A stretch of 23,183 nt of DNA, taken from positions 1-23,183 of the IMG/VR virus record IMGVR_UViG_3300049024_000077; one strand, 5' to 3'. Under the pieces are notes generated by a model. It ran no database searches and had not been told where the DNA came from. It saw nothing but the letters and a program-made list of their open reading frames with translations. Position 1 is the first letter of the stretch. Each line of letters begins with the position of its first letter. Source of the stretch: a virus. Below are positions 565 through 22,600 of this stretch, piece by piece. The position numbers were made by a program, and so were the translations under genes.

Positions 565-1560
565 CTAACCTACGGGCCACGCGCACATAGGAGTACTGTC
601 TGCGATCGCCATGCCGCAGACCATCCCCGGTGCACAGTCGGCATCGTCGGAGCAGCGAGGGTAGCAAGCATCGCCCCAGCCGATTTCGTACGTAGTGCCG
701 ATGTCAGGAAGCGTTGGCGGGCACGAACCGAGCGGTAAACAAATGTTGCTCTCGCCGAAGTCCGCCGGCACGCAAGCCAAGTCCTCGCCGTAGCAAAGCG
801 TAGGCTGGCCGCTCTGCTGGTCGGTGGGGCACGGGCCCCAAAGCTGGCCGGCTTCAAAGAGAGGCTCCGTGCACAGTCCGTCGACGCACACGAGATCAGC
901 TCCGCAGGGACACGGCTCGCCGAGATCGCCTTTACATGCAGGAGCCTCGGCTTGCGCAAACTGATCGACGTGACAGGTAGGCCAGACCAACATCGAATCC
1001 TCGCCGCTCACGGCGACGCATGTCGCCGACTGTCCGTCGAAGCACCCGATACTGTCCCATGGGTGTGTGCTGACCTGCCCGGCGGCTCCCTCACATTGGT
1101 ACTCCGACCACGCGGACACCGTACCGGGTCCGATTTCGCAAGACGGCGCGACTTGGGTCCACCACGCTCCATCCCCCGCGTAGCATACCGACGTCCCGCG
1201 ATCGAAGATGGTCAGACACCGCCATTCGGGCAGCAAACCGCTTGGGTGTTCGCCTGCGCGGCAGGACTCGGCCGTCCATGCGTCAACGGGTGCTGCTTTG
1301 CCAGAGTCAATCAATTCGTCCAGCAAGCAACTTTCAACGACGATCGTCCACGCATCGTCCGCGGTGTTCAATCGTCCGTAGCAGATGTCAGCAATGGACT
1401 CTACGCAGCGGATTTCAGCCCAAACCGAAACGTCGTCACCGTCGCCGTCACCGTCTCCGACCTCGCCGGAAGTCTCCTCGCCGCCGTCTGTCAAGATTCC
1501 ACCCGGTGCGCAACCGAGCAGCATCAGCGACGCGACAATCGTGAACGCAACACACTTCAC
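565..1560 (-). CDS. Cys-rich outer-surface lipoprotein, Nannocystineae style (paralog of the next gene)
   Basis: This 331-residue protein has a classical lipoprotein signal: a short charged N-terminus, a hydrophobic core and the lipobox LLGC with acylated Cys17. A Gly/Asp-repeat linker (about residues 34-43) precedes the mature Cys-rich part. Residues about 48-230 hold several Cys/Trp modules, including PEWRC, GAWWTQV and LVWPTC. Residues 241-329 form a block that starts WGPCP and ends MCAWP. The same block, nearly unchanged, occurs in the upstream gene, so the two are paralogs. The start overlaps the upstream stop by four bases (ATGA), indicating translational coupling. The Gly-Asp linker plus EGF-like Cys repeats is a style I associate with Nannocystis-group myxobacterial surface lipoproteins. 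Function is unknown. If phage-borne, a role at the host surface such as blocking superinfection is possible but unproven. Confidence 0.85.
   Translation of the reverse strand: MKCVAFTIVASLMLLGCAPGGILTDGGEETSGEVGDGDGDGDDVSVWAEIRCVESIADICYGRLNTADDAWTIVVESCLLDELIDSGKAAPVDAWTAESCRAGEHPSGLLPEWRCLTIFDRGTSVCYAGDGAWWTQVAPSCEIGPGTVSAWSEYQCEGAAGQVSTHPWDSIGCFDGQSATCVAVSGEDSMLVWPTCHVDQFAQAEAPACKGDLGEPCPCGADLVCVDGLCTEPLFEAGQLWGPCPTDQQSGQPTLCYGEDLACVPADFGESNICLPLGSCPPTLPDIGTTYEIGWGDACYPRCSDDADCAPGMVCGMAIADSTPMCAWPVG
575..840. repeat. Direct repeat copy 1 (paralogous lipoprotein block)
   Basis: This segment encodes the WGPCP...MCAWP block of the shorter lipoprotein and matches 1748-2010 in the longer one at the DNA level, with long identical runs such as TGCGATCGCCATGCCGCAGA. 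Similarity at silent positions suggests a fairly recent duplication or gene conversion. Confidence 0.85.
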
Positions 1561-3041
1561 GGCTGCACCTCGCAGAATCCGTCGGCGCAGACCAGTCCGA
1601 GATCACATTGTCCGTTTGCACATGGACAACCGATCTGTCCGGCGGGACACGAAGTGCACCAGCCATCGCTGCACGTGAGATTCTCGGCACATTCGCCGCC
1701 AGGAAGACAGTTGCATCCGAGCGTGCCGGCGCATGATTCTTCACGCGGCCAGGCGCACATTGGCTGACCGTCTGCGATCGCCATGCCGCAGACCATGCCG
1801 TCTCCGCAGTCGTCGTCTGTCTCACATCGGAGATAGCAAGCATCACCCCACCCGACCTCGTGCATCGTCCCCCACGTCGGAGCGTCCGCGGGGCACGAAC
1901 CGAGCGGCAAACAGATGTTCGATTCACCGAAGTCAGCAGGCACGCAAGCCAGGTCTTCGCCATAGCAAAGCGTGGGTTGTCCGCTCTGCTTGTCGATCGG
2001 ACACGGACCCCACGCCTCGCCCGGCGCATACCCGGTCGGCCATGCGCAGAAGCCCTTGTTGCTTGCGTCGATCGGCGAGCACTCCAAATCGCCGCAGTCG
2101 TCAACGTTCTGCGTGCAGCCAGCCACACAGGCCGAATCGTGCAACACGCCTGAAAGTTCGAGCGGTAGGCCATGGTCGCAAGGCTCGGTACTCGTGGTGT
2201 TGGGCAGCGAGCAAACTTCGTTCCCGTTGTCTGCAACCGCGCAGATGAGTCCCGGCAAACAAGCGTCTCCGGGCATGCAGCGGCAACCGAGATCACCGTC
2301 AACGCACGCTTGACCGTCGCCGAGACACTCGGGCACGGGAGCCGGTGGCAGCATGTCGACCCAGCACGTCGGCCAGATCCTGAACGAGTCGTCGGCATAC
2401 TCTCCCGTGCACGACGTGATCGGATCGGTCAAGCAGCCTGTCGCGGACCAAGGGTTGGTCCCGACCGCCGAAGCCTCGCCGCAGATCGACGCTGGCCACG
2501 GTGCGACGGGCCCGGCCGGTGCATCGCACTGCGGACGGACCTGCGTCCACCACTGGCCGTCGCCCGAAAAGCACGCTGACGCCTGGGCCTGCTCCCTGAA
2601 CAAGCAGCGCCATTCCGGCATGAAGTTCGCGGGATGCTGACCGGGGGCGCACGTCTCGTCGGTCCATCCAGCGACGTCGCTTGCATCTCCCGTGGCTACC
2701 AGGTCATTGAGAACGCAGTCCGCCACTACGACCACCCATGCGTCTTCGGACCCGACGGGGAGGCCGTAGCAAACATCGAGTTCGTTGACTTTGGTGCAAC
2801 GGATTTCGGCGAATGCCGCCTCGCCATCGCCGTCGCCGTCGCCCGTCGGGTCACCGTCGCCGTCGCCTGATTCGGACGTGGCGCCAGTTTCTTCACCGCC
2901 ATCCATGGCGATATCTCCGGGCGCGCACGCGCAGAAAATGCCTACGGCAAGCAATGTGTGTAGTGACCGATAGGTCTGGCCGATTACAGATCGGTCGGGT
3001 AAACTAGAAGAGACCATCGAAGTAAAGATCTTGAATGTCAT
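1557..3041 (-). CDS. Larger Cys-rich lipoprotein, paralog of the downstream gene
   Basis: I chose the ATG at 3041 because AAAGGAAT lies just upstream; the frame continues to 3116 but that extension runs through a hairpin and does not look like protein. The 494-residue product has a long n-region, a hydrophobic stretch (about 29-38) and a lipobox ending at Cys39, followed by an acidic linker containing two Gly-Asp repeats. The body repeats the domain order of its neighbour: modules PEWRC, GQWWTQV and RIWPTC, then the WGPCP...MCAWP block. It adds about 60 C-terminal residues made of short Cys repeats (GCNCLPGG, IGCPCANG). No catalytic motif is visible. It is probably anchored in the outer membrane and disulfide-bonded. 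It is the first gene of a two-gene operon with a hairpin in its leader. Confidence 0.85.
   Translation of the reverse strand: MTFKIFTSMVSSSLPDRSVIGQTYRSLHTLLAVGIFCACAPGDIAMDGGEETGATSESGDGDGDPTGDGDGDGEAAFAEIRCTKVNELDVCYGLPVGSEDAWVVVVADCVLNDLVATGDASDVAGWTDETCAPGQHPANFMPEWRCLFREQAQASACFSGDGQWWTQVRPQCDAPAGPVAPWPASICGEASAVGTNPWSATGCLTDPITSCTGEYADDSFRIWPTCWVDMLPPAPVPECLGDGQACVDGDLGCRCMPGDACLPGLICAVADNGNEVCSLPNTTSTEPCDHGLPLELSGVLHDSACVAGCTQNVDDCGDLECSPIDASNKGFCAWPTGYAPGEAWGPCPIDKQSGQPTLCYGEDLACVPADFGESNICLPLGSCPADAPTWGTMHEVGWGDACYLRCETDDDCGDGMVCGMAIADGQPMCAWPREESCAGTLGCNCLPGGECAENLTCSDGWCTSCPAGQIGCPCANGQCDLGLVCADGFCEVQP
1748..2010. repeat. Direct repeat copy 2 (paralogous lipoprotein block)
   Basis: This is the partner of 575-840. 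It lies inside the longer lipoprotein gene, followed in that gene by extra Cys repeats absent from the short paralog. Recombination between the copies could delete or fuse the two genes. Confidence 0.85.
2822..2870. repeat. Short tandem GTCGCC-type repeat coding a Gly-Asp linker
   Basis: An imperfect hexameric GTCGCC/GTCACC repeat encodes, on the minus strand, two Gly-Asp runs after the lipobox. A shorter version sits at about 1436-1465 in the paralog. Such tracts are prone to slippage and so to linker length variation. Confidence 0.7.
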
Positions 3042-3046
3042 CGGGA

Positions 3047-3053
3047 TTCCTTT
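3047..3053 (-). promoter_or_regulatory. Ribosome binding site deciding the long lipoprotein start
   Basis: Read on the minus strand, AAAGGAA lies five bases upstream of the ATG at 3041. It is one of the clearer Shine-Dalgarno sequences in the window and is the reason for preferring 3041 over 3116. Confidence 0.7.
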
Positions 3054-3061
3054 GGTGGTTA

Positions 3062-3093
3062 GAGCACGGGTCCGCGGCAACGGACCCGTGCTC
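3062..3093. other. Perfect 13-bp hairpin in the lipoprotein operon leader
   Basis: GAGCACGGGTCCG (3062-3074) is exactly complementary to 3081-3093, with a six-base loop. It lies about ten bases upstream of the ribosome binding site of the long lipoprotein gene. No T tract follows it on the minus strand, and only AGTTTCG follows it on the plus strand, so it is not a typical terminator. A structured 5' leader, an mRNA stabiliser or a protein-binding site are all possible. Confidence 0.7.
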
Positions 3094-3280
3094 AGTTTCG
3101 CACAGCACAGTACCATGGGCAGGTACCTTTATGCCACAGGGGTGATCGCGCGCGTGCGTGAGAGCGCCACCTGCTGCCGTGCCTAGTTCATAGATTGGGC
3201 ACGCAAAGCACGCAAGGATTAACAGCGTGATTTTCGCGGGCGTGTCCGTGAGCTTACGCTACGTTTTTCCTTGCATCGCC
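3094..3280. other. Intergenic stretch, possible control region
   Basis: I see no gene here. The stretch contains a small direct repeat, GCACGCAA at 3199-3206 and again at 3208-3215, spaced one base apart like half-sites on one helix turn, and a weak inverted repeat around a GGTACC near 3115. No convincing -35/-10 pair is visible on either strand. If the small ORF at 3281-3538 is not real, the empty stretch extends to 3561 and would have to hold divergent promoters. Confidence 0.4.
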
Positions 3281-9836: not shown

Positions 9837-11294
9837 CTACTTGGCCGGGTCGAAGGCCCAATTCTTCAGCGAGATGTCTCGCTTGCTCGGCCCCTCGCGC
9901 CCGTCGATCTTGACGGGCTCGCCCTGCTCGGCCCCGCGCATCCGGCTCACGAAGGTGACGGTGCGCATCGCCGCGACAGCGTCGGCGAGCGTCCAATCTT
10001 CCTTGCGTTTGCGCAGCAGTCGGAGGTTGCGCTCGATCGGCGTGCGGTCCAGCGAAGCCTTGCGGCTCCACTCGGTTTTGGCCCACGCCTCCAGCTCGGC
10101 CGCGCCCATGTTCACGGTCTCGTGATAGCGGGCGAACGCGGTGTCGATGCGCTCGCGCTTCGCTTCTTCGGAGAGGTCACCGCACGACGCGAGCCACAGC
10201 GTCTCATCGATCGCGTCGTCAATCTCGGGCCCCGCGTCGGAGATGGGCTGCTCTGCACACGCGATCGGCAGCGCGAGATCGTCGTACCAGACTTCGCACT
10301 CGGTCGCCGTCCAGCCCTCCGACGGCACGGGGCCCGTGTAGTCTTCGCCGGGCTCCAAGTACGCGAGGGTCAGGTGCGGCGTGTAGTCGTGACTGACGTG
10401 CGCCACGTCGACGCCACACGCGGCCACGGCTTCGCGCAGTGCATCATGCAGCGCGGAGAGTTGCGCCGTCGGACGCACGCGCATGAACGCGACGCGCTGC
10501 TCGTTGTCGAAGTAGTCGACGCCGTCGAAATCGATAGCTAGCGCGGGCGTCTCGGCGAGCACGCGGCGGACCGCGTCCAAGATCGGGACGACCTTTTGGG
10601 GGTGCACCTTGCCGACGTAGAGCAGCGTCACGTGCGGGGCCGAGGTCTCGTTGCTCTTGTAGGGCACCCACTGCGCGACGCGTTTCGGGGCGCGCAGCAT
10701 GACGCCGACGGTGTAGCGGGCTTCGTTGCGCGCCGCTGCGTCGCGGACCTTGTCGCCGGTCGGCGCGGGTTCGGCTGCGGGCAGCTTGCCGTTGCCTTGC
10801 AACACGACGCGCTTGACCTCGCTCAGCGAGTAGCGGGGCTTGCCACCGAGCACGTTCCAGCCTTCGATCAAGCCGGCCCTGTGGGCTCGCGTGACGCGAA
10901 CCGTCGGGATGCCGAACTCGGCTGCGATCTTCGGGGCCTCTACAGCGTCAGCGGGCAACGGGTTTTGCGACCACAGCAGATCGACTTCGCTCGGCTCGCC
11001 CTCGCTGTCTTCTTCGTCGACGGGCGCAGGGGCGTTCGGACCGGTTGGCGCTGGCACCGGTTTCGGCGGTGCAACGCGCTCGGGAAAGACTGCGGCGATG
11101 TTCTCGGGCGTGAAGAACGTGGACGCGACCGCGAGCATGAAAGCGCGTCCGGCTTCGACGGGGATGCCCTCGGGATAGAGCGCCTGCAACAGCTGCACGC
11201 CGCCCGTGAACACGCCGACGGGAGCGAGCGCAGCGTCGTCTTGCGCGTCCAGGTCGATTTCGGGACGGAAGTAGTCGTCGGTCAACGCCGCCAC
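9837..11294 (-). CDS. Multidomain protein: 2H phosphoesterase domain plus DUF3140-like C-terminus
   Basis: This 485-residue protein starts 12 bases after the portal gene. Residues 1-75 resemble no domain I know; 76-110 is a Pro/acidic linker. Residues about 118-165 look like a DNA-binding helix-turn-helix/wing (FGIPTVRVTRAHRAGLIEGW then RYSLSEV). Residues about 190-345 are a 2H phosphoesterase, with both catalytic motifs intact: HVTLLYVG (His221, Thr223) and HLTLAYLEPG (His307, Thr309). Residues about 386-485 resemble DUF3140 (RYHETVNMGAAELEAW, LLRKRKEDWTLAD, SLKNWAFDPAK). 2H enzymes cleave 2'-5' or cyclic phosphodiesters; phage Acb1 of this superfamily destroys CBASS signals, and its family is linked to DUF1073 portals. 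Defence evasion is plausible, as is a capsid-associated RNA role. Confidence 0.85.
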   Translation of the reverse strand: MAALTDDYFRPEIDLDAQDDAALAPVGVFTGGVQLLQALYPEGIPVEAGRAFMLAVASTFFTPENIAAVFPERVAPPKPVPAPTGPNAPAPVDEEDSEGEPSEVDLLWSQNPLPADAVEAPKIAAEFGIPTVRVTRAHRAGLIEGWNVLGGKPRYSLSEVKRVVLQGNGKLPAAEPAPTGDKVRDAAARNEARYTVGVMLRAPKRVAQWVPYKSNETSAPHVTLLYVGKVHPQKVVPILDAVRRVLAETPALAIDFDGVDYFDNEQRVAFMRVRPTAQLSALHDALREAVAACGVDVAHVSHDYTPHLTLAYLEPGEDYTGPVPSEGWTATECEVWYDDLALPIACAEQPISDAGPEIDDAIDETLWLASCGDLSEEAKRERIDTAFARYHETVNMGAAELEAWAKTEWSRKASLDRTPIERNLRLLRKRKEDWTLADAVAAMRTVTFVSRMRGAEQGEPVKIDGREGPSKRDISLKNWAFDPAK

Positions 11295-11306
11295 GGCGGG
11301 ACGCGC

Positions 11307-12704
11307 TTACTTGCGCGTCAGAAGTCCATCGCTCACGAGGTCGCGGATATTCGTGAGCGCCTGGCTGCGAAGGTCGCCGCGTGTCTTCTCGTCGGGCGGA
11401 CTCAGGTCTTCGTAGTGAATGGTGCGCTGTGTGTCGGCGGGGAGGTTGCAACCGTCCTTCGCAACGAGGATCAGCGCGTGCAAGTGCATGAGCTGCGGCG
11501 TCAAGACGATGCGCTGGAAAGCGCGAGCGTCCTGGTGAAACGTGAGCATCTCGCTCTCGCCCTTGCCGAAGCCGCCCGGAGAGACGCCCCAGAACTGCGT
11601 GACCGGAATGCCGAGCGCGGCCGAAGCCCAGACCATGAACGGATTGCTCAGGTCCGCAACGCCGCCCATGGAGCGGTTCTTGATCTCGACGTCTTCCTGG
11701 TCCTTGTCGATGACCCACGCGTTGATGGTCGACTTCGCCTTGTCGACGAAGCTCATGTGTGCGTGCGCCAGATTGGCGTCTTCGCTCCACGCCTTGCGAA
11801 CCCAGTCGGTGATTTTGTAGACGACCGTGCTGCTCTCGCGCGCAGCCGTGGCGATGCCAGACATCGCCGTGAAGTACCCGCCGAGCGAGTCTTGGAGCGA
11901 GTCCAGGAGCGGCAGATAGTCGGTCGTCGGGAAGCTCAGCACGCGTTCGGCGTGGTACTGGAACACGCCGTACGACAAGCGGCGCAGGTCTTCGTCCAGC
12001 TGGTCGTATTGATAGGCGACGGTGTCGGGGCCGTAGCGAAGGCCGTCCTCGAGCACGCCGTTGATGTCCGTGATCTCGTAGGTCTCGATCTCGCCGAAGT
12101 GCTCCGAGCTCGCCGGGTACATCTTGAACGCCCGGAAGTCGCGCGAGTCGATCACTGCGGCCCAGCGGATGCGCTGCACGTTGGCCCAGTCGACGGGCTG
12201 ATCGAAGCCGCGACCGTCTTCGATCCCGAGCAGCACGAGCGCTTGGCCTTGCTGGCGTCCGCGGAAGAGAGCCCGCGCGATCGCGGTGCCGGTGCCGAGA
12301 CGGCTTTCGTACGCGGCGATCTTGTCGGCACAGGCTTCCTTGTCCTCCACGCGATCGTCGGTGATGACGGGGCGCCAGCCCTCGCGCGTCGCGGTGTAGG
12401 GGAGCTTGCCGAGCGCCTGCGCGATCAGGCCGTTGCGACCCATGCCGACACGCTCGGCGCGGGAGAGCGGCCGCGGGAGAGACCAGCTGTTGAAGAAGCT
12501 CGGATCGCGGTTGGTGCCGACGCCGGTAAACGCGTTGATCAGCGCGGATGTGCTGACGTACAGCTCGTTGTACAAACCGCGCGCAAAACCGCCACCCTGT
12601 TTCAATTTGTTTGGATCGATCGAATCGGCAGCCGGCATCGCGCGCGGCGGTTGGGTGGCCGGAGACGCGGAGTGGCGACGGCGGAGACGGTCAAACAGGC
12701 CCAT
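11307..12704 (-). CDS. Phage portal protein (DUF1073 type)
   Basis: This 465-residue protein forms the ring at the capsid vertex through which DNA enters and leaves. The best signature is at 371-385, FWGVSPGGFGKGESE, matching the 'GxSPGGxxxxGES' motif of DUF1073 portals, followed by the helical region where these proteins form the stem. A typical N-terminus (MGLFDRLRRR) and the central GKLPYTATREGW segment (99-110), where the partially open template 'P..ATREGW' is common, agree. It follows the large terminase by 52 bases, the normal packaging order, and precedes the 2H-phosphoesterase gene. The DUF1073 family (PF06381) has also been linked by name to Acb1-like proteins, but this one has no 2H domain itself. 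Confidence 0.92.
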   Translation of the reverse strand: MGLFDRLRRRHSASPATQPPRAMPAADSIDPNKLKQGGGFARGLYNELYVSTSALINAFTGVGTNRDPSFFNSWSLPRPLSRAERVGMGRNGLIAQALGKLPYTATREGWRPVITDDRVEDKEACADKIAAYESRLGTGTAIARALFRGRQQGQALVLLGIEDGRGFDQPVDWANVQRIRWAAVIDSRDFRAFKMYPASSEHFGEIETYEITDINGVLEDGLRYGPDTVAYQYDQLDEDLRRLSYGVFQYHAERVLSFPTTDYLPLLDSLQDSLGGYFTAMSGIATAARESSTVVYKITDWVRKAWSEDANLAHAHMSFVDKAKSTINAWVIDKDQEDVEIKNRSMGGVADLSNPFMVWASAALGIPVTQFWGVSPGGFGKGESEMLTFHQDARAFQRIVLTPQLMHLHALILVAKDGCNLPADTQRTIHYEDLSPPDEKTRGDLRSQALTNIRDLVSDGLLTRK

Positions 12705-12756: not shown

Positions 12757-14382
12757 TCACTGCTTCGCCAGCACATCCGGCCCCAGCCACGGCGTGCGGC
12801 AGATGATCTGCATTGCCAACGTGTCGCGGCGGTCGTCGGGCTTGCTCGGGTAGGAGCCTTGCTCGTGCACCCATGAACCTTGCTGCTCCATGCTACCGAC
12901 GAAGCTGTGATCGACCAACGGCAGCGCGGGGTTCGTGGGGTCGCGGCCGAAGGACTCGCTGGGAACCCACACGCGCTGTTGTCCGGTGACGACCGAAGCG
13001 ACGCGGTAGCAGTAGAGCTTGGACCGCACCTTACCTACGGCGATGATCGGGTAGGTTCCTGCGTATTTCTTGATCACGGTCTGGCCGAGCGCCTTAGCTT
13101 CGACCCACCACTGGCCCGCGCGGAACTGCTTCGGTAATGCGGCCTTCCATTTTTTGCCGAGCCGCTGCATCTCGTCTTCGATCTGGCCGAGCGAGTAGTG
13201 ACCGCGGCTCTCGTCTAACAAGAAAAAATACTGGCCGCCGTCGGGCGTACGCAACACGCCGAACACGTGGATGCACGCGTAGCTCTGCCCGCTATCCGAC
13301 AAATTCGTGTCGATCGAAAAATCCAGGTAGTCTAGTTGCTTGGCGAGATCGAAGCTGCCGTTGTAGGTAGCCCAGTCGTCGGGCTGGAAAAACTTTTGAC
13401 CGAGCGCGTTCGGTCGCTGCTGGTAGAGGCCGTGCCACACCCACGGCTGCGTAGCGAGCAGCGCGTTGCGAGTGCCTTCGTAGTGCGCGAGCGAGTAGAT
13501 ACCGTCGGGCGGACCCTTGTCTAGACCTTCGCCGATCTGCCGGGGGTCGTCGGGCTCGAGCGGATCTTCGGCAATCGCGGGAAAGCGCAGCACCTTGATC
13601 GGGAGATGCAGCCCGGCCGTCTCCTGGCTCCGCCAGAAGTCGCAGAGCTCGTCCACGAAGTCGGGTTCGGTCCAGCGCGTACCGATGTACAGCTGGCCGG
13701 CGTGCTGGTGATTGGCTCGCGTGGCGAACGTCGACGCGTAGAAGGCCCAGACCTTCGGGTTCGTGGTCGGGCTCATCGCCTGTTCGGCGTTCTTGACCAG
13801 GTCGTCCATGATCCCGATATCGAAGCCCTTGCCCGTGAGCGAGCCGCCGAGGCCTTGCGCGAGGTAGTAGCCCTTCGCGGGGACGTACTCTTGCGAGCCC
13901 GCGTGTTTGGGCTTCAACGTGTTGAACATTAACGCGGCGTCGGTGACTTCCACGACGCCCTGGCGCCGGCCCGTGTTGTCGTCGATGCTCTCGACCTTGC
14001 CGACGCGCGTAGCGAAGGTCTGCTTGTAGAGCGCGGAGTTCATCCACTCGCGCGTGTTCTTGACGCCGTCCTTGGCTAAGCTCGCGCCGTTCGTGGCGAC
14101 CATGATCTTCAAATCCGGGTCGACGCCGAGAGCCATCGCGGGGAGTAGCTCGGTTGCGTGCAGGCTCTTGCCGTGGCGCGGCGGCATCGAGATCACGACG
14201 CGCGCGTAGCCGCCCCGCTCGCCCTTGTAGCGGACGAAGCGGAGCAGACCCTCCAGCGCTTCGGCGATCTGCACGTGATACCAGTGCAGGCGCCGGTCGT
14301 ACTTGGGCACGACCAGCTTGCCGAGCGCGACGATCGAGCGACGGGCTTGGGCTTGGCGAGCGGCGTGGAGCGAGGCGAACAT
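12757..14382 (-). CDS. Terminase large subunit
   Basis: This 541-residue ATPase-nuclease pumps DNA into the prohead and cuts it. The N-terminal ATPase has a Walker A-like loop at 65-73 (SMPPRHGKS) and Walker B ending in Asp193/Asp194 (FDIGIMDDLV), with a coupling segment YIGTRWTEPDF (232-242). The C-terminal RNase H-like nuclease shows acidic residues at Asp354 (YLDFSIDTN), Glu428 (WWVEAKALG) and the KPDDRRDTLAMQI end (514-526). Length and layout fit the family. The start at 14382 has no clear Shine-Dalgarno and follows the methyltransferase region. The matching small subunit is not next to it. Confidence 0.97.
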   Translation of the reverse strand: MFASLHAARQAQARRSIVALGKLVVPKYDRRLHWYHVQIAEALEGLLRFVRYKGERGGYARVVISMPPRHGKSLHATELLPAMALGVDPDLKIMVATNGASLAKDGVKNTREWMNSALYKQTFATRVGKVESIDDNTGRRQGVVEVTDAALMFNTLKPKHAGSQEYVPAKGYYLAQGLGGSLTGKGFDIGIMDDLVKNAEQAMSPTTNPKVWAFYASTFATRANHQHAGQLYIGTRWTEPDFVDELCDFWRSQETAGLHLPIKVLRFPAIAEDPLEPDDPRQIGEGLDKGPPDGIYSLAHYEGTRNALLATQPWVWHGLYQQRPNALGQKFFQPDDWATYNGSFDLAKQLDYLDFSIDTNLSDSGQSYACIHVFGVLRTPDGGQYFFLLDESRGHYSLGQIEDEMQRLGKKWKAALPKQFRAGQWWVEAKALGQTVIKKYAGTYPIIAVGKVRSKLYCYRVASVVTGQQRVWVPSESFGRDPTNPALPLVDHSFVGSMEQQGSWVHEQGSYPSKPDDRRDTLAMQIICRTPWLGPDVLAKQ

Positions 14383-14418
14383 GTCAACGCAGTTGTTCGA
14401 GACACCAGTGATAGGACA

Positions 14419-15148
14419 TCACCGCTTGTTCAACGACGACCGTATCCCCAAGACTTCCGACGCGCTCTCGTCGTCGACGTGCGTCCAATCCGCGGGGAGA
14501 CCCAAGAGACGCTCGATGAAGACCGGGTTCAACACCATCGAAGCCTTGCCCGGCCCGACTTGTTGGTTGTGGTAAAGCAGCATTGCATCGGTGAGTGTCG
14601 GGTACTGATGATAACGCATTTCGCCGTAACCAAGCTGACGCGACTCCTTCCAATCGGCCTGTTTCGGTGACGGCCAGCAGGAAGACTCGAGCACGGTTGA
14701 TTTGCCCACCGACCTCGGTCGCGCGGCTAATCGTCCACGCAGCATCACACCCGATTTCGGCAAGTCCTTGCAAGACGGTATCAAGTCCCCTTGTCCGAAG
14801 ATCGGCCACGTTTTCGATGAAGATGGCATGAGGTTGAGCTTCTTTGATTATGCGAAGATACTGAAACCACAAGCCTGAATGCTTGCCTTCAATGCCCTGT
14901 TTAGAGCCGAGCGGAGAGATGTCTCGGCAAGGGAACCCTCCGCACAGGACATCAAATTGTCCAGGTGTTGCGTTGTACGAACAGACGTCATCATGTCGCT
15001 GCACGTTGGGCCAGTGCTTGGCAAGCACTGCGCGACGGTACGGCACCGCTTCGACTTGTGTGACTGTACGCCCTCCGGTGACGATCTCGACTGCACGGTC
15101 GAGCGCGCCTATGCCAGAGAACAGCGAGAGGATGCGGGGTTGAGTCAT
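14419..15148 (-). pseudogene. C5-cytosine DNA methyltransferase, interrupted by a frameshift
   Basis: The 5' part (from 15148) is a clear Dcm-type enzyme: motif I LSLFSGIGALDRA, catalytic Cys74 in GGFPCRDIS, motif VI IENVAD and motif VIII-like INRARVFLLA. After residue 157 the frame drifts into unrelated sequence ending at 14384. A +1 shift at 14677 (CTG, skip C, TGG) restores a typical phage C5-methyltransferase tail: WPSPKQADW, then LNPVFIERLLGLPADW, stop at 14419. The gene is thus mutated, subject to +1 recoding, or carries an assembly error; no classical slippery site is evident. It is visibly AT-richer than both neighbours, suggesting recent transfer. Intact, it would protect phage DNA from restriction. 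GGAG precedes the ATG. Confidence 0.85.
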
Positions 15149-22057: not shown

Positions 22058-22600
22058 TCACGGAGTGCACACGATCGTGAACGGCGGTTTGCAATAGGCG
22101 TTGACCGAGCACGCGGCTTCCAGCGCCGCAGTGATGCGCTTGCGAGGGTCCCGCCAAATCCCGGCGGTTGTGTGCAGCGAGCCCATCGCCAGTTCGCGGC
22201 CGCAGCCACGCGCTGCGAAGTCGGCAAACTCCTCCACGGCATAGTAGCTGTCCATGGTGAATAGCCGGTCTTCGTAGCCGATCAAGAGCACCGGTCCGAG
22301 CTCTTGTCCGGTTGTCACCTTCTCATCAAAGCCCGAATCCTTGCGAGCTTGTCGGAGAGCGTCAGCGAAGTCGATGCACAGGTAACGCAGCACGTCGGTG
22401 CTGTCGTTCATGTTCGGCAGCGTGACGCGGTGTTGGATGATTTGTTGCTCGCGCAGCGCCCCGGTGCAGGCGAACACGAAGTCGCCTTGCTGCCAGACCT
22501 TCGGTTGAGTGGACGCGGCGACAACATCGCCATTGGTCGTGGCCGAGTCAGCGCCTACCCACGTGCGCCCGTTGTGCACGACGCCGACGAGCACGGTCAC
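22058..22600 (-). CDS. HslV/proteasome-like Ntn hydrolase
   Basis: This 180-residue protein matches the proteasome beta/HslV fold. It begins Met-Thr-Val-Leu-Val; after Met removal the N-terminal Thr would be the nucleophile. In that numbering Asp17 (VGADSATT) and Lys33 (QPKVWQ) fall exactly where HslV has Asp17 and Lys33. The FVFACTGA segment is the usual 'hydrophobic-x-GxxG'-type strand, and the C-terminal RITAALEAACSVNAYC helix also fits. HslV is 175 residues. No HslU ATPase is seen here. It may act as a phage protease or another N-terminal-nucleophile hydrolase; a prohead protease role is a guess. It starts ATGA-coupled to the preceding gene. Confidence 0.8.
   Translation of the reverse strand: MTVLVGVVHNGRTWVGADSATTNGDVVAASTQPKVWQQGDFVFACTGALREQQIIQHRVTLPNMNDSTDVLRYLCIDFADALRQARKDSGFDEKVTTGQELGPVLLIGYEDRLFTMDSYYAVEEFADFAARGCGRELAMGSLHTTAGIWRDPRKRITAALEAACSVNAYCKPPFTIVCTP

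What the first reader, a model, noticed from the sequence alone, without database searches (positions are those of the whole stretch)
9837..12704. Portal gene followed by a 2H phosphoesterase-DUF3140 fusion: possible anti-CBASS function
The downstream protein keeps both HxT motifs, carries a helix-turn-helix-like segment and ends in a DUF3140-like domain. The anti-CBASS enzyme Acb1 is a 2H phosphodiesterase, and DUF1073 portals are the family to which Acb1-like proteins are linked, so the arrangement suggests defence evasion evolved next to, or split from, a portal gene. The three-part architecture is new to me.
Basis: partly seen in the sequence, partly recalled or inferred. Interest (0 to 1): 0.75.

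Follow-up and report, generated by a model that had tools for sequence, protein, structure and literature searches.

The report
Portal-linked 2H phosphodiesterase, split by stop
A phage gene for the DNA-entry ring of the virus particle is followed, after a single in-frame stop codon, by an enzyme domain that cuts RNA-like phosphate bonds; in a related virus the two are one protein, and many phages carry a known immune-signal-destroying enzyme at the same place, so this is probably a virion-borne counter-defence enzyme, though of a different enzyme branch.

Summary
On the minus strand a PF06381 (DUF1073) portal gene (12704-11307) is followed 12 bases later by a 485-aa ORF (11294-9837) with a 2H domain, both HxT motifs, and a C-terminal DUF3140-type domain; the HTH is only weakly supported. 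The two ORFs share one reading frame, separated by a single TAA. A related viral contig (L012) encodes portal, 2H and DUF3140 as one 1034-aa protein with GAG at the TAA position, so the window is a fused gene interrupted by a nonsense codon (mutation, assembly error or functional split; unresolved). Contig L024 also has a portal-2H fusion. But this 2H domain is LigT/drCPDase-like, not Acb1: PF23474 scores 14 bits against a 27-bit cut-off; structure Z is 16.5 (drCPDase) against 9.4 (Acb1). Portal-2H fusions were predicted in 2017 as injected effectors. The DUF3140-type tail is the most conserved part and recurs in other head modules: alone after an unrelated portal, and behind a halovirus maturation protease. 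New variant of a known kind.

The parts
12757..14382 (-). Terminase large subunit (context: phage head/packaging module)
   Evidence: phrog_38 TerL E 1.5e-49; syntenic with L012
11307..12704 (-). Portal ORF, 465 aa, PF06381 (old DUF1073), ending at an in-frame TAA
   Evidence: Pfam 2.1e-30, phrog_146 1.1e-40; 58% identical to the portal part of L012
11307..11309 (-). In-frame TAA (codon 466 of the joint frame); GAG (Glu) in the fused relative L012; Glu also in L024 and S-CBS4 in the portal alignment
11295..11306 (-). Four sense codons (Ala-Arg-Pro-Ala) between TAA and GTG, in frame with both ORFs; no Shine-Dalgarno
9837..11294 (-). Downstream ORF P0001, 485 aa (GTG start): end of the portal C-terminal tail, linker, 2H, DUF3140-type tail
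   Evidence: AF2 model mean pLDDT 62, helices 16-69, 2H core, helices 364-453
11259..11294 (-). VAALTDDYFRPE: stretch conserved with L012 (9 of 12 residues) although it lies after the stop
10794..10952 (-). MerR/BldC-like segment (residues 115-167), weak
   Evidence: BldC 0.011, phrog_66 0.013, no Pfam hit; 50% identical in L012
10284..10715 (-). 2H phosphoesterase domain (residues 194-337)
   Evidence: PF13563 6.6e-20; AF2 model of the domain pLDDT 86.8; Z 16.5 to drCPDase 5h7e
10626..10634 (-). First HxT motif (His221-Val-Thr223)
   Evidence: His and Thr invariant in 11 phage 2H domains
10368..10376 (-). Second HxT motif (His307-Leu-Thr309)
   Evidence: His and Thr invariant in 11 phage 2H domains
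9840..10208 (-). DUF3140-type tail domain (residues 363-485; Pfam match 9915-10127)
   Evidence: Pfam 25.7 bits, cut-off 25; 78-80% identical to L012, dN/dS 0.17; about 58% identical to standalone proteins in L032-L060

Best explanation
The two ORFs are one ancestral gene for a phage portal protein whose C-terminus carries a 2H phosphodiesterase and a DUF3140-type tail; in the window it is interrupted by one in-frame TAA. The 2H part is a virion-linked effector. It sits at the C-terminal slot of PF06381 portals that in other phages holds the anti-CBASS enzyme Acb1, and it most likely cuts a nucleotide substrate early in infection or during assembly, by metal-free HxT/HxT chemistry, for the benefit of the phage (a cyclic or linear oligonucleotide immune signal, or 2',3'-cyclic phosphate RNA ends made by defence RNases). 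Shown: the anatomy, the in-frame stop, the fused relatives, the intact catalytic motifs and the LigT-like predicted fold. Inferred: packaging in the virion (from portal fusion and head-module relatives), activity, substrate and counter-defence role. Given the stop, either the 2H part is now made separately by termination-reinitiation at the GTG 12 bases downstream, or the contig carries a nonsense mutation or base-call error.
For: One frame, one TAA, no indel at the junction; GTG start and VAAL.DDYFR align inside the fused relative. L012: single 1034-aa ORF with PF06381, PF13563 and DUF3140 all above cut-off, same gene order TerL-portal-2H. L024: another PF06381-2H fusion of 737 aa. dN/dS 0.40 in the portal core, 0.41 in 2H, 0.17 in the tail. 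Related 2H domains lie in head modules: after MuF (L004), fused to XkdF-type protease (L008, L028), and in the 2039-aa Rctr197k multidomain protein. BFVD matches include named capsid morphogenesis and structural proteins. Acb1 occupies the same portal slot in other phages, with the full-length Pam3 portal as a solved virion protein. Iyer et al. 2017 report portal-2H fusions and predict these two kinds of function (PMC5512222).
Against: No activity data. The closest structures are RNA 2',3'-cyclic phosphodiesterases, so a plain RNA-end function is possible. A portal normally stays in the virion, so it is unclear how a fused domain reaches the cytoplasm; no cleavage site was shown. Only one contig shows the stop, so it may be an error. 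Host and its defence systems are unknown.
Confidence: 0.55

Rival explanations
1. The 2H domain is an RNA-end healing or RNA-processing enzyme (LigT/ThpR- or Usb1-like), repairing or trimming RNA cut by host anticodon nucleases, not a destroyer of cyclic nucleotide signals.
For: Profile best match drCPDase 9.9e-14, LigT 0.0026, Acb1 0.025; VIA Z 16.5 drCPDase, 14.7 LigT, 14.2 human Usb1, 9.4 Acb1. Iyer 2017 lists RNase as an equal option.
Against: No RNA ligase recognised among the window genes examined (fragment only); below the curated cut-off of the LigT equivalog TIGR02258 (53.8 against 65.7 bits); position on the portal is the Acb1 slot.
Confidence: 0.3
2. The TAA is a sequencing/assembly error or a private nonsense mutation; the real gene is the fused portal-2H-DUF3140 gene as in L012. 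(Compatible with the best explanation: it concerns the stop only.)
For: A one-base change from GAA would explain it; TAA is rare in this contig (2 of 19 genes examined, TGA 14); residues after the stop are still conserved; all eight other PF06381 portals compared continue past this position; no Shine-Dalgarno before the GTG.
Against: No second copy of this virus is available to check (one search found none); several other genes here also lack a clear Shine-Dalgarno.
Confidence: 0.5
3. The TAA is functional: termination yields mostly plain portal, and read-through or reinitiation yields few copies of the effector form, setting effector dose per virion.
For: Exact frame retention, ORF intact for 485 codons, GTG 12 bases downstream of the stop.
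Against: TAA-G is not a leaky context (general knowledge); no unusual RNA structure downstream (-27.3 against -28.6 +/- 3.3 kcal/mol for simple shuffles); the relatives L012 and L024 have no stop.
Confidence: 0.12
4. Bona fide Acb1: an anti-CBASS nuclease of the Acb1 family with a DUF3140 tail.
For: Same fold superfamily and HxT/HxT tetrad; same portal family carries Acb1 elsewhere.
Against: PF23474 14.3 bits against cut-off 27; hhalign aligns only the second-motif region; the C-terminal LGPEIFEEV-type motif of portal-Acb1 proteins is not seen in P0001.
Confidence: 0.06

Closest known systems
Portal-2H and MuF-2H fusions of phage polyvalent proteins (Iyer et al. 2017, PMC5512222)
   Same: 2H phosphoesterase joined to a portal, head module
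   Different: Window form is interrupted by an in-frame TAA and ends in a DUF3140-type domain, which the passages read do not mention
PF06381 portal-Acb1 fusions (RHph_N17, phiPSA1, Erebus, Ssp-JY39, Pam3)
   Same: Same portal family, 2H-fold enzyme at the portal C-terminus
   Different: Acb1 (PF23474) clade there; LigT/CPDase-like clade here; no DUF3140 match in RHph_N17
Bacterial RNA 2',3'-cyclic phosphodiesterase (drCPDase 5h7e; E. coli LigT/ThpR)
   Same: Closest fold and profile match, HxT/HxT
   Different: Cellular stand-alone enzyme; window protein is below the TIGR02258 equivalog cut-off and is portal-linked
DUF3140 (PF11338)
   Same: C-terminal domain just above the gathering score
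   Different: Here part of a phage head module; related phage forms stand alone after a PF04860 portal or follow a maturation protease in a halovirus

Membership tests
Acb1 (anti-CBASS 2H nuclease) | Match to Acb1 profile PF23474 above its cut-off | tested here: not met
   14.3 bits against 27 for the domain alone; not listed at E<=1 for the full protein
Acb1 (anti-CBASS 2H nuclease) | HxT/HxT catalytic tetrad | tested here: met
   H221/T223 and H307/T309, invariant in A4
Acb1 (anti-CBASS 2H nuclease) | Base-stacking aromatics, adenine-contacting Glu141 and C-terminal lid (PMC9117128) | tested here: inconclusive
   Only the second-motif region aligns between profiles, so equivalent positions could not be assigned
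Acb1 (anti-CBASS 2H nuclease) | Cleavage of 3'3'-cGAMP and related CBASS signals | not testable with these tools
   needs an assay
LigT/ThpR RNA 2',3'-cyclic phosphodiesterase (TIGR02258) | Equivalog score above cut-off | tested here: not met
   53.8 bits against 65.7
2H phosphoesterase superfamily (PF13563) | Profile match, fold and two HxT motifs | tested here: met
   6.6e-20, 72.1 bits against 27; Z 16.5 with 159 residues at 3.1 A to 5h7e
PF06381 phage portal | Portal profile match | tested here: met
   2.1e-30
Portal-2H fusion effectors (Iyer 2017) | 2H domain in one polypeptide with a portal | tested here: not met
   In the window a TAA separates the two; met in relatives L012 and L024
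Portal-2H fusion effectors (Iyer 2017) | Protein present in the virion and delivered to the host | not testable with these tools
   needs virion proteomics; a portal-Acb1 protein, Pam3, is deposited as a 12-chain portal
DUF3140 (PF11338) | Score above gathering cut-off | tested here: met
   25.7 bits in window, 27.5 in L012, cut-off 25; marginal

The most novel reading that the evidence does not exclude
The C-terminus of PF06381 portals is an exchangeable dock for 2H nucleases of at least two separate branches (Acb1 and LigT-like), giving each virion up to twelve copies of a pre-made immune-signal or RNA nuclease, and the DUF3140-type tail is a head-module adaptor; in this phage a stop codon sets how many copies are attached.
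Probability: 0.1. Interest if true: 0.75.

Novelty: new variant of a known kind. Interest (0 to 1): 0.5.

Why it matters
If right, phage particles would bring counter-defence nucleases with them on the portal, before any phage gene is expressed, and the same portal position would have been filled by different 2H branches. That would make 'which nucleotide is destroyed by the virion itself' a direct biochemical question, and it would give the DUF3140-type domain, so far without a function, a concrete setting (phage heads) in which to be studied.

Tried and rejected
Acb1 membership: rejected by profile. Recoded TAA: unlikely; all other genes examined read without internal stops under table 11 and no other split gene was noted, and no RNA structure signal follows the stop. 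Frameshift as cause of the split: rejected, the frame is exact. Defence-library match for the 2H protein: none in PADLOC. Searches that found nothing: P0001 and P0002 in viral contigs, a consensus-like sequence of my own, genome contigs with P0001 and with the tail (the patterns are sparse, so this is weak), plasmids, DNA-level phage match to L012, junction DNA in viral contigs (the window's own record and near copies may be left out). The whole-protein structure was poor outside the 2H domain. A paper on a portal-Acb1 fusion was looked for and not found. The Pam3 portal is absent from the rows shown; noted, not used.

Full report
What is there. The window is a 23,183-base IMG/VR virus fragment with no host genome. 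Phage genes run mostly on the minus strand: DNA polymerase A, ThyX, MazG-like, nucleotidase, C5 methyltransferase, terminase, portal, the 2H ORF, then a class II ribonucleotide reductase. The portal (12704-11307) is PF06381, formerly DUF1073 (2.1e-30). The next ORF (11294-9837, 485 aa, P0001) has a 2H domain (PF13563, 6.6e-20) and a DUF3140 match just over its cut-off. Both HxT motifs are intact, and their His and Thr are invariant across eleven phage 2H domains. The helix-turn-helix is only suggested (E about 0.01 in two libraries; none in Pfam).

The split. The two ORFs are in the same frame: codons run ... ACG CGC AAG TAA GCG CGT CCC GCC GTG GCG .... A scan with a small 2H alignment found contig L012 (IMGVR_UViG_3300035192_000084), where one 1034-aa ORF carries portal, 2H and DUF3140. 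It aligns to the window with no gap at the junction; TAA stands opposite GAG. Identity is 58% before and 54.5% after the stop, with dN/dS 0.40 in the portal core, 0.41 in 2H and 0.17 in the tail (one pair of sequences, simple NG86 counts). The stretch VAALTDDYFRPE after the stop is still 75% identical to L012, and all eight other PF06381 portals compared continue beyond this position (the alignment there is gappy). So the ancestral gene was most likely fused. I cannot tell a sequencing error or private nonsense mutation from a functional split: no other copy was found, the GTG has no Shine-Dalgarno, and nothing marks a read-through site.

What kind of 2H. A profile of eleven related domains ranks drCPDase first among solved structures (9.9e-14), then other 2'-5' RNA ligase-like proteins; E. 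coli LigT is 0.0026 and Acb1 0.025. The AlphaFold2 model of the domain (pLDDT 86.8) gives Z 16.5 to drCPDase, 15.8 to YjcG, 14.7 to LigT, 14.2 to Usb1, 12.0 to the rotavirus VP3 2'-5' phosphodiesterase, 9.4 to FBB1 Acb1 and 8.9 to the poxvirus cGAMP enzyme. PF23474 (Acb1) gives 14.3 bits against 27, and the profile-profile match is confined to the second motif. It is therefore not Acb1 by sequence, and it is also below the LigT equivalog cut-off. A fold shows no substrate.

The portal slot. The RHph_N17 portal is PF06381 plus Acb1. Its tail finds 48 phage records; the first 32 are portal, head or unnamed CDSs in Rhizobium, Pseudomonas, Synechococcus, Aminobacter, Sinorhizobium and Pseudanabaena phages (some records are duplicates). 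Five were opened and are 600-621-aa portal CDSs. The proven FBB1 Acb1 is among the weaker hits (2e-4). The full-length Pam3 portal is in the PDB as a 12-chain portal (8hds, aligned over query residues 9-610). L024 is a PF06381 portal with a LigT-like 2H, like L012 and the window. Other relatives of this 2H branch sit after MuF (L004), with methyltransferase or DNA ligase and XkdF-type protease (L008, L028), and in large multidomain proteins (Rctr197k, L013). Iyer et al. 2017 described 2H fused to MuF or portal and proposed RNase activity or destruction of nucleotide signals (PMC5512222). This is prior work, and it covers the main idea.

The tail. The DUF3140-type tail is the best conserved part (78-80% identity to L012). 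It found 30 other viral contigs; in the eight inspected a 124-aa protein directly follows a portal-like gene and lies upstream of a MuF-like gene; in L032 these were identified as PF04860 portal and Phage_Mu_F. In Halorubrum virus HRTV-7 a related domain follows a head maturation protease domain in gp10. I infer a head-related role; its function is unknown and no paper in the held library mentions DUF3140.

Conclusion. Anatomy and common ancestry with a fused portal-2H gene are well supported. A virion-linked effector role is inferred from position. The substrate is open between immune nucleotide signals and 2',3'-cyclic phosphate RNA; anti-CBASS activity is possible but untested, and the host group could not be examined.

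Noticed in passing
L032-L060 (e.g. L032:5938-6312): Standalone 124-aa DUF3140-type gene directly after (overlapping) a PF04860 portal gene in a group of related viral contigs.
   Followed up: partly
L062:4329-5489 (HRTV-7 gp10): Halovirus head maturation protease with a C-terminal DUF3140-type domain.
   Followed up: partly
L013:5875-10995: 1706-aa phage protein combining a 2H domain with a eukaryote-type topoisomerase I catalytic core.
   Followed up: no
L028:5245-10545: 1766-aa phage protein with 2H, ATP-dependent DNA ligase and XkdF-type protease domains.
   Followed up: no
window 14384-15148 (-): C5 cytosine methyltransferase gene with much lower GC3 (0.52) than its neighbours (about 0.8), suggesting recent acquisition.
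   Followed up: no
window 565-3116 (-): Two cysteine-rich lipoprotein-like ORFs with GDGDGD linkers, reminiscent of Myxococcota (from memory, not tested).
   Followed up: no
window 22058-22600 (-): Weak proteasome beta-subunit-like match (0.0098).
   Followed up: no
L012:8257-12036: 1259-aa ORF at the place of the window's ribonucleotide reductase; the window RNR has no tblastn match there.
   Followed up: no
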